A model generated the notes under the pieces. The model did not search any database and was not told the DNA's origin. It saw only the letters and a list, made by a program, of their open reading frames with translations. Both the position numbers and the translations under genes were made by a program. A DNA stretch of 64,000 bases from an uncultured Polaribacter sp. GTDB taxonomy: Bacteria; Bacteroidota; Bacteroidia; Flavobacteriales; Flavobacteriaceae. Of the stretch, positions 61,869 through 63,472 are shown piece by piece. Positions within the stretch are counted from its first letter, which is position 1; each line of letters starts with the position of its first letter. The stretch is taken from contig CALSOT010000002.1 of NCBI GenBank assembly GCA_943788045.1, positions 62,001 to 126,000 of the forward strand, in the 5' to 3' direction.

Positions 61869-61992
61869 AACGTGTTTGTGTATGAGTTGTTGCGTGTTTA
61901 AGCGACTAATTTAGTAAATACAAAACCAACTAGAAAATCCGCGAGGATTTTCGTAAGTAGAGTAGAACTAGCAATTAATTATACACGGTGTT
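61869..61992. repeat. Junction J5
   Basis: AACGTGTTTGTGTAT...TTGCGTGTTTAAGC...GAAAATCCGCGAGGATTTTCGTAAGT...AGCAATTAATTATACACGGTGTT. Confidence 0.85.
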
Positions 61993-62003
61993 GTACGCAG
62001 TTT

Positions 62004-62453
62004 TTATTCTTTTTTTATCAAATCCGTTGCTTTTTTAATTCCGCAACCAATTACAAAAATTCTCGTTCTCCAGTCGTTTGTTCCACCATAAGGAATTTTG
62101 TCTGTCCAATATTGAATTTCACGATTTTTAAGTTCCGATAATATTTTTTCTACATCTGAACTTTCTTTATACATTCCAATATAATTCCGATTAGAGTGTT
62201 CGTCCGCTTTTATTTCTTTTAGAGCATATTGAATAGCATCTTTTTCAGTCGCAAAATATTCCAGCGTTCTTTTGTCTCCACGTTCTGTATAATACCATTC
62301 ATAAAGTCCTCCATTATTTTCAATTCCACATCCTTCATAAATGAAATTTCCATTAATGCTATAACTGTTCATTGGATAACAATTCTCTTTTAACCATTTT
62401 TCCAATTCTAATACAGTTGCTATTTCTGTTTCGTTTTTCAAGTTACTCGTCAT
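62004..62453 (-). CDS. Hypothetical soluble protein
   Basis: 149 aa ORF, overlaps upstream ORF by 11 nt. Confidence 0.6.
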   Translation of the reverse strand: MTSNLKNETEIATVLELEKWLKENCYPMNSYSINGNFIYEGCGIENNGGLYEWYYTERGDKRTLEYFATEKDAIQYALKEIKADEHSNRNYIGMYKESSDVEKILSELKNREIQYWTDKIPYGGTNDWRTRIFVIGCGIKKATDLIKKE

Positions 62454-62682
62454 TTGGTTTCTTTTTGAAAATTCCGAAAACCCACTTTAGGTTTATAAAA
62501 ATCAAAATCACTAAAATTATTCCTATGATTATAAATTCGTTTGTCGGAAGATTTTTAAAAGTCGGACGTTGTATTTTTTCAATTAATGCGATTGAATAAG
62601 CAAATATTAAAATACCTGTCATAAATACAAGAATTGACTTTCCAATAAATTTAATTGTATTCAAAATTTGATATTTAATCAT
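62443..62682 (-). CDS. Hypothetical small membrane protein
   Basis: 79 aa, 2 TM-like segments. Confidence 0.6.
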   Translation of the reverse strand: MIKYQILNTIKFIGKSILVFMTGILIFAYSIALIEKIQRPTFKNLPTNEFIIIGIILVILIFINLKWVFGIFKKKPNDE

Positions 62683-62712
62683 TCAGTTTGTTAGTTTGGT
62701 CAAATTGCGTAG

Positions 62713-62839
62713 AACGTGTTTGTAAAAGATTTAGTTGCGATAGTTTAGTAATGAATTTAATAAATATTTACTGACAAAGAAAATCCGCGAGGATTTTCGT
62801 AAGTTGACTAAAAGCAAGCAATTAATTTTGTAAGGTGTT
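62713..62839. repeat. Junction J6
   Basis: AACGTGTTTGTAAAA...AGTTGCG...GAAAATCCGCGAGGATTTTCGTAAGT...AGCAATTAATTTTGTAAGGTGTT. Confidence 0.85.
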
Positions 62840-63316
62840 GGCAACTGGCATTTTTTTCAGAGCTTTATTTAATTCATTTTCTCTTTGTGTCCCAATCACA
62901 ATTTTTTTTCCATTTTTAAGTTCAATTGCTAACCCTTTATTTCCATTTATATTATAAACAGTTCCGTATTTACTTCCAAGTCTTATGCCGTAACCTACAA
63001 ATCCATAATTTACAATTTTCACGGATTGTATTTCACTCCATTGAATATTCTTTTTCACAAATGGAATAAAACGCATCTTAATACCGTCATCATTTATTTC
63101 TGAAATTAAAGTCATATACCAATTAAAATATATAAACCCGAAAACTCCAATAGCAAAAAATACCATTCCAACATCTGACATTGGTTTATTTCCAAATTGT
63201 TCACCCAAAATTATTTGTGTGAAAAAACCATAAACAGCGATAGTTCCAAGACCGATTAAAATTAGCCAAAACCACCATTGAGTAAATTTTTGTCTTTCTT
63301 TAAATATAATTTCCAT
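62822..63316 (-). CDS. Membrane protein with PH-like C-terminal domain
   Basis: 2 TM-like segments then KNIQWSEIQSVKIVNYGFVGYGIRLG. Confidence 0.6.
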   Translation of the reverse strand: MEIIFKERQKFTQWWFWLILIGLGTIAVYGFFTQIILGEQFGNKPMSDVGMVFFAIGVFGFIYFNWYMTLISEINDDGIKMRFIPFVKKNIQWSEIQSVKIVNYGFVGYGIRLGSKYGTVYNINGNKGLAIELKNGKKIVIGTQRENELNKALKKMPVANTLQN

Positions 63317-63348
63317 AATATTTCTGCTGTTCGTTTTTGCTTGTTGCC

Positions 63349-63472
63349 AACGTGTTTTTATAAGGAAAGTTGCGTGTTTTAAGCACTGAAATTAACAAAT
63401 GAAACACTGATAGAAAGTCCGCGAGGACTTTCGTAAATTGGCAAAAACCAGTAATTTTTTTTATACGGTGTT
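63349..63472. repeat. Junction J7
   Basis: AACGTGTTTTTATAAGG...AGTTGCGTGTTTTAAGCACT...GAAAGTCCGCGAGGACTTTCGTAAAT...TATACGGTGTT. Confidence 0.85.

What the first reader, a model, noticed from the sequence alone, without database searches (positions are those of the whole stretch)
61869..63472. Covarying GCGA-loop hairpin at the core of three junction repeats
J5 and J6 contain GAAAATCC-GCGA-GGATTTTC; J7 contains GAAAGTCC-GCGA-GGACTTTC. The A-T to G-C change is compensated on both arms, so the 8-bp stem and GCGA loop are preserved. Flanking blocks are also shared (AACGTGTTT, TTGCG, CGTAA, AGCAATTAATT or similar, GGTGTT). On the plus strand the loop is GNRA-type, opposite to the gene strand, which suggests a folded single-stranded DNA or antisense RNA structure.
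Basis: seen in the sequence. Interest (0 to 1): 0.8.

Follow-up and report, generated by a model that had tools for sequence, protein, structure and literature searches.

The report
Integron-like cassette array with unusual integrase
The repeated hairpins are recombination sites of a gene-capture array that works like an integron but sits beside an integrase lacking the part thought essential for such systems; sites of this type occur in most genomes sampled from this family of mainly marine bacteria.

Summary
The hairpins are real and exactly where stated, but they are only the tips of larger sites. J5-J7 (118-121 nt) are attC-like recombination sites of a cassette array of 14 consecutive cassettes, which runs from window 60028 past the window end and stops at an attI-like sequence. 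Sites found without using their outer boxes show that the two ends of one cassette are perfectly complementary in 73% of 270 cases, against 1% for random box pairs and 3.5% across a junction. This is expected if boxes are rejoined when a cassette circularises. Duplicated cassettes keep their gene-3' site and change the gene-5' one. The strand opposite the genes folds better in 96% of sites (75% for shuffles), and its stem mismatches are G.T rather than A.C. So the folded-single-strand idea is supported; antisense RNA is not needed. The linked tyrosine recombinase keeps its catalytic residues but lacks the ~42-residue IntI insert carrying the I2 helix, held to be necessary for cassette capture. 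The array lies 3' of the integrase, not 5'. The site family occurs in 209 of 251 Flavobacteriaceae genomes searched. No description was found in the open papers searched. Recombination itself is inferred, not shown.

The parts
61869..61992 (+). attC-like site J5 (core 61872-61989, 118 nt, between box end AAC and next GTT), belonging to the cassette on its right (gene 62004-62453, minus strand)
   Evidence: L-stem covariation; CM R1 match E 1.3e-29
62713..62839 (+). attC-like site J6 (core 62716-62836, 121 nt)
   Evidence: CM match E 5.8e-21
63349..63472 (+). attC-like site J7 (core 63352-63469, 118 nt)
   Evidence: CM match E 9.9e-25
61933..61952 (+). inner hairpin GAAAATCC-GCGA-GGATTTTC of J5
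62779..62798 (+). inner hairpin GAAAATCC-GCGA-GGATTTTC of J6
63413..63432 (+). inner hairpin GAAAGTCC-GCGA-GGACTTTC of J7
61157..61338 (+). attC-like core of the long class (182 nt) between cassettes 1 and 2; no GCGA hairpin
   Evidence: folds as a long imperfect hairpin on the plus strand
60028..61156 (-). cassette 1: ends GTTAGCCATA / TATGGCTAAC; gene 60055-61116 (acyltransferase-3 family, PF01757)
61339..61871 (-). cassette 2: ends GTTGTAAAC / GTTTACAAC; gene 61376-61858 (160 aa, no Pfam hit)
61990..62715 (-). cassette 3: ends GTTGTACGC / GCGTAGAAC (one mismatch); gene 62004-62453 (149 aa)
62837..63351 (-). cassette 4: ends GTTGGCAAC / GTTGCCAAC; gene 62822-63316 (DUF6141-like, below cut-off); its stop codon lies in J6
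63470..64000 (-). cassette 5, cut by the window end (continues to contig position C2:126077): ends GTTGGCAAT / ATTGCCAAC; gene 63461-63880
57771..57816 (+). short-class attC-like core (46 nt) left of the main array

Best explanation
The junction repeats are attC-type recombination sites of an integron-like cassette array. A cassette is one gene, occasionally more, plus the site at its 3' end; its two ends carry a cassette-specific inverted repeat (GTT-N6...N6'-AAC, stem extending to 14 nt). A linked tyrosine recombinase probably excises and inserts cassettes by crossover at the GTT box, between attC sites and an attI-like site just 3' of its own gene. The attC is most likely used as a folded single strand, the strand opposite the genes (plus strand here): R stem from the two cassette ends, an asymmetric spacer (usually 5-6 against 3 nt), an L stem, and a variable tip that includes the GCGA hairpin. 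Shown by comparison: the architecture, the unit that moves, the boundary at GTT, the strand-biased folding and the integrase linkage. Inferred: that this integrase is the recombinase, and that the substrate is single-stranded DNA.
For: Chains of at least 6 cassettes occur on 31 strands against 0 in reversed-sequence controls; 30 of 30 such chains with an integrase in the stretch have the orientation that starts at the integrase 3' end. Sites found without using the outer boxes: 346 against 13 in control; same-cassette ends 6/6 complementary in 73%, random 1.1%, same junction 3.5%. The DoxX-like cassette occurs in two arrays at 99.9% over 885 bp, switching exactly at AAC/GTT, once next to attI and once next to another attC. 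In duplicated cassettes of at least 94% identity the gene-3' site is 0.91-1.0 identical and the gene-5' site mostly 0.27-0.74 (the gene-5' exceptions look like block or tandem duplications). The plus strand is more stable in 96.3% of sites (74.8% shuffled) and L-stem mismatches are G.T 274 against A.C 17, cluster level 59 against 12. The R stem runs to position 14 with a T.G wobble at position 11 in about 81% of 447 cassettes. Covariation score is 0.297 against 0.106 shuffled and at most 0.091 slid. A putative attI lies between integrase and first cassette in 32 loci, many sharing an AAC-T-N-G-TTATAT-type start. The longest ORF lies on the gene strand in 378 of 393 cassettes.
Against: No recombination was observed; everything is comparative. 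The esterase cassette at C2:128185-129260 and C5:8840-9905 keeps gene and ends but differs in its gene-3' site, so some exchange at the other box also happens. Some cross-genome pairs at 83-92% gene identity have unlike sites on both sides. Shuffled controls are also skewed towards the plus strand (75%), so part of the fold bias is composition. The main array of the window has an attI-like end but no integrase beside it; the intact integrase is on another contig (C5:13410-14564).
Confidence: 0.9

Rival explanations
1. The repeats encode an antisense or terminator RNA transcribed from the plus strand; the covariation reflects RNA folding.
For: The plus-strand fold with G.T pairs would equally be a G.U-paired RNA; T-runs near gene ends.
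Against: The outermost stem joins the two ends of the same cassette across the gene, not the two sides of a junction (73% against 3.5%), so no linear transcript of the junction can form it. Site plus gene move as one unit. No Rfam family matches.
Confidence: 0.04
2. The array is a canonical integron remnant (CALIN) whose cassettes were moved by an ordinary IntI that has been lost or acts from elsewhere.
For: Canonical IntI genes occur in 86 of 300 sampled genomes of the phylum; architecture is integron-like.
Against: No genome of this family in that sample has an IntI match at the limit used. The sites have their own box consensus (GTTRRRY in 24 of 447) and mostly lack the extrahelical base seen in all 22 canonical attC sites examined. 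Arrays adjoin the insert-less integrase in one orientation in 30 of 30, opposite to the canonical arrays examined.
Confidence: 0.05
3. Xer-dif type mobile modules: genes flanked by inverted Xer sites moved by the host XerC/XerD.
For: The integrase is Xer-related; both XerC- and XerD-like proteins are in the genome.
Against: Sites are ~118-nt folded structures with cassette-specific boxes, not a fixed ~28-bp dif-like sequence (what a dif site looks like is from general knowledge). A dedicated recombinase and attI-like site sit at the array end.
Confidence: 0.02
4. Dispersed transposon-like hairpin repeats (MITE, REP or IS200/IS605 type) inserted between genes.
For: Repeats are intergenic and hairpin-forming.
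Against: Gene and 3' repeat move together and each gene unit has its own matching ends; repeats alternate regularly with genes on one strand over up to 20 units.
Confidence: 0.01

Closest known systems
Chromosomal integrons (intI, attI, arrays of promoterless-gene cassettes each with a 3' attC), e.g. the Vibrio cholerae superintegron
   Same: One-directional cassettes of gene plus 3' site, crossover at GTT, cassette-specific complementary R boxes, attI-like site next to a tyrosine recombinase, structured site with R stem, spacer, L stem and variable tip on the strand opposite the genes.
   Different: The integrase lacks the IntI insert (60-61 residues between the KDR motif and HxLR, against 102 in IntI) and has an extra N-terminal region. 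The array lies 3' of the integrase. Box consensus is GTTR(T/G)(C/A/G) rather than GTTRRRY. Most sites lack an extrahelical base in the L stem, and the bottom strand is favoured through G.T wobbles.
Canonical IntI integrons of other Bacteroidota (loci L244, L245, L255, L256, examined here as a positive control)
   Same: The same cassette-end complementarity is found by the same program.
   Different: Array 5' of intI; an extrahelical base in 22 of 22 sites; the bottom strand is not more stable (23%); unlike L-box sequences.
XerA / XerH recombinases (PDB 5hxy, 5jjv) and integron integrase IntI4 (2a3v)
   Same: Best sequence and fold matches of the integrase.
   Different: Xer proteins act on fixed dif-type sites; IntI4 carries the insert that this protein lacks.

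Membership tests
Integron (functional sense) | Cassette = gene + 3' attC, with ends that restore complementary R boxes on circularisation | tested here: met
Integron (functional sense) | attI site adjacent to the integrase gene, where the first cassette begins | tested here: met
   32 loci with a junction of the same AAC boundary within 400 nt of the integrase; a sequence candidate only, not tested for activity
[quoted passage not shown]
   bottom-strand folding and wobble bias support it; no assay
Integron (functional sense) | Pc promoter driving cassette expression | not tested
   no promoter analysis was made
IntI integron integrase | IntI-specific insert / I2 helix in the catalytic domain | tested here: not met
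   75 of 75 array-linked integrases have 60-61 residues where 10 IntI have 102; alignment to 2a3v skips the insert; literature calls the insert defining (PMC9668308; PMC7790495)
IntI integron integrase | Passes the curated NCBIfam model TIGR02249 (265 bits) | tested here: not met
   186.7 bits
IntI integron integrase | Tyrosine-recombinase catalytic residues R, K, H, R, H, Y | tested here: met
   at least 74 of 75 at each position
Canonical attC | R' box GTTRRRY | tested here: not met
   24 of 447; but the IntI arrays examined here match in only 3 of 26, so this is a weak criterion in this phylum
Canonical attC | Extrahelical base in the L stem that directs strand choice | tested here: not met
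   220 of 351 sites best paired without one; 22 of 22 IntI sites have one
Canonical attC | Recognised by the IntegronFinder / HattCI models | not testable with these tools
   those models are not held here
Xer-dif module | Fixed dif-like sites used by host XerC/D | tested here: not met
   168 distinct 6-nt boxes in 447 cassettes and ~118-nt structured sites

The most novel reading that the evidence does not exclude
A second kind of integron, widespread in Flavobacteriaceae and present elsewhere in Bacteroidota, in which a tyrosine recombinase without the I2 helix recombines folded single-stranded attC sites, choosing the strand through G.T wobble pairs and an asymmetric spacer instead of docked extrahelical bases; single-strand cassette recombination would then have arisen twice or before the I2 insert.
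Probability: 0.5. Interest if true: 0.93.

Novelty: new variant of a known kind. Interest (0 to 1): 0.85.

Why it matters
Current literature holds that single-strand cassette recombination is unique to IntI, and that the I2 insert confers it, is necessary for cassette capture and occurs in no other protein (PMC7790495). Arrays with the hallmarks of that process, next to an integrase without the insert, make this directly testable. The survey of 2022 reported only one complete integron in Bacteroidetes (PMC9024848), whereas this site family is in 209 of 251 Flavobacteriaceae genomes, so a major gene-exchange system of mainly marine bacteria may have been overlooked, with hundreds of uncharacterised cassette genes.

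Tried and rejected
Rfam search of the region: nothing above chance. A first chain finder without context rules gave too much noise (control chains up to 7) and was replaced. Antisense RNA, canonical CALIN, Xer-dif modules and transposon-like repeats were considered and rejected as listed. The tree of integrases does not settle whether the insert-less group is sister to IntI: only two Xer rows with very long branches, root by midpoint. The AlphaFold model (pLDDT 80, pTM 0.50) supports the general fold but domain placement is unsure. The 'always wobble' first pair next to the boxes is an artefact of the T/G context used to find cassettes and is not used. Literature searches with nine sets of terms found no description, but only open-access PMC papers are held.

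Full report
Observation. The three hairpins are present at window 61933-61952, 62779-62798 and 63413-63432, with the compensated A-T to G-C change. Genome-wide, the pattern with up to two mismatches is found at six plus-strand places on one contig, and the backward-read control finds none. A BLAST with the whole J5 finds eight further near-full-length copies on three contigs, plus partial ones. So the repeat is real and far beyond chance.

What surrounds it. All genes near the repeats are on the minus strand. Each gene unit starts with GTT-N6 and ends with the reverse complement N6'-AAC, for example GTTGTACCTA...TAGGTACAAC. Between the AAC of one unit and the GTT of the next lies a core of about 118, 182 or 46 nt. 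In the window's own contig this gives a chain of 14 consecutive cassettes, C2:122028-134417, of which cassettes 1-5 begin in the window (60028 onwards). The chain ends at C2:134413 in a sequence, AACTAGTATATATGCTGATG..., that recurs in related form at C2:151096 and at C5:13289, where it directly follows the 3' end of a tyrosine recombinase gene, C5:13410-14564 minus. In the window the four cores are one of 182 nt and J5, J6 and J7.

Test of the cassette idea. Sites were located in 87 stretches from this and related genomes by core features alone (AACG...TGTT at 100-125 nt, L-stem pairing), without using the outer boxes: 346 sites against 13 in reversed sequence. For 270 pairs of neighbouring sites the boxes at the two ends of the same cassette were perfectly complementary (6 of 6) in 73%; for random boxes 1.1%; for the two sides of the same junction 3.5%. 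This is what integron cassettes show, because the R'' and R' boxes of one attC are brought together only when the cassette circularises. Chains of six or more cassettes were found on 31 strands and in no control.

What moves. The DoxX-like cassette exists twice in this genome. An 885-bp block at 99.9% identity comprises the gene-3' core, the gene and its 5' end; outside it the sequences differ, one copy abutting attI and the other another attC, with the switch at AAC/GTT. In 447 cassettes from many genomes, near-identical duplicates keep their gene-3' core at 0.91-1.0 identity, while the gene-5' core is mostly near or below background (mean 0.56), except in what look like block duplications. 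The mobile unit is therefore gene plus 3' site. One exception is the esterase cassette, whose two copies differ in both cores.

The folded strand. Restored sites (cassette ends plus core) fold more stably on the strand opposite the genes in 96.3% of 270 unique sites, with shuffled sequences at 74.8%. In the eight outer L-stem columns that strand shows 1871 Watson-Crick pairs, 274 G.T, 17 A.C and 62 others. The excess of G.T over A.C persists when sites are reduced to 72 or 40 clusters: 59 to 12 and 32 to 8. The R stem runs to 14 nt and ends there; its position 11 is a T.G wobble on that strand in 362 of 447 cassettes. On 60 aligned sites of the J5 type, 98.1% of pair cells are paired against 87.2% after shuffling; the covariation score is 0.297 against 0.106 shuffled and at most 0.091 when slid. 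The hairpin is thus the variable tip of a larger structure. Its GNA/GNNA loops would suit DNA hairpins, from general knowledge of such loops.

The recombinase. The C5 protein (385-404 aa) has the PF00589 catalytic domain. The catalytic residues R, K, H, R, H, Y are conserved in at least 74 of 75 relatives fetched with the arrays. Between the KDR motif and HxLR all 75 have 60 or 61 residues, close to the two Xer proteins of this genome (64 and 68) and unlike ten canonical IntI (102). It scores 186.7 bits with the integron-integrase model (cut-off 265) and 209 with the XerA model (cut-off 220), so neither is met. The best PDB relatives are XerA and IntI4, the alignment to IntI4 skipping the insert. 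The model shows an extra N-terminal alpha/beta region of about 75 residues. Relatives in phylum family f23 lack this N-terminal region and in several genomes share a contig with such sites.

Linkage and spread. In 30 of 30 long chains with an integrase in the fetched stretch, the array has the orientation that starts at the integrase 3' end. Integrase relatives at E below 1e-40 occur in 162 of 251 family genomes, and the site model in 209 of 251 and 30 of 150 across the phylum. The closest named relative of the integrase is 95% identical, in a Polaribacter metagenome assembly.

Comparison with canonical integrons. IntI genes above the curated cut-off occur in 86 of 300 genomes of the phylum, none of them in this family. 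Four IntI-linked arrays served as positive controls. They show the same cassette-end complementarity, but lie 5' of intI. All 22 sites have an extrahelical base in the L stem, and the folded strand is not the more stable one (23%). The insert-less arrays differ in each point: 3' position, 220 of 351 sites without an extrahelical base, and 96% strand bias. This suggests, as inference, that strand choice rests on wobble pairs and spacer asymmetry instead of extrahelical bases docked by the I2 helix.

Knowledge so far. The 2022 survey lists In0 elements and a single complete integron in Bacteroidetes, Salinibacter ruber (PMC9024848). Papers call the insert defining (PMC9668308), and necessary for cassette capture and absent from other proteins (PMC7790495). 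A classification of tyrosine recombinases notes that the insert is not fully conserved in its integron-like subgroup (PMC8138268), so insert-less relatives have been seen, but no cassette arrays for them were found in the papers searched. CALINs with attC sites, one of which recombined with attI1 under IntI1, are reported in a Polaribacter phage (PMC9892861); whether they are of the present type was not tested.

Verdict. Architecture and mobile unit are well supported. That the insert-less integrase is the recombinase is likely (about 0.8). That it uses single-stranded DNA is likely (about 0.8) but rests on strand-biased folding. The finding is a new variant of the integron, and possibly an independent one.

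Noticed in passing
window 59959-60027; also contig C2:134958-135030 and C2:143425-143490; related end at window 54111-54147: A terminator-like hairpin repeat (AAGTCCCTTAAAAAGGGACTT followed by ...GCTTGTGCAACG) recurs near array ends or breaks; it may mark the last cassette or be another site class.
   Followed up: partly
C2:128185-129260 and C5:8840-9905: The same esterase cassette with identical end boxes but different cores on both sides, hinting at occasional exchange at the R'' box.
   Followed up: partly
window 57771-57816 and gene 57850-59451: A 46-nt short-class site left of the main array, with partly matching ends (GTTCTGGG / CCCAGAAC near 59491) around the following gene, so the array may once have extended further left.
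   Followed up: partly
whole-phylum sample: Canonical IntI integrases occur in 86 of 300 genomes of the phylum outside this family, more than the 2022 survey suggested.
   Followed up: partly
plasmid hits: TnpF-like recombinases on Acinetobacter plasmids are about 52% identical to the C-terminal 58% of this integrase; they may be relatives adapted to another element.
   Followed up: no
and contig lengths: Integrase genes very often lie within a few kb of contig ends, as if the repeat-rich arrays beside them broke assemblies; array content is probably underestimated.
   Followed up: no
window 56768-57444: Five copies of a 38-nt motif at 159-162 bp spacing inside the gene 56302-57759 (minus), a tandem protein repeat.
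   Followed up: no
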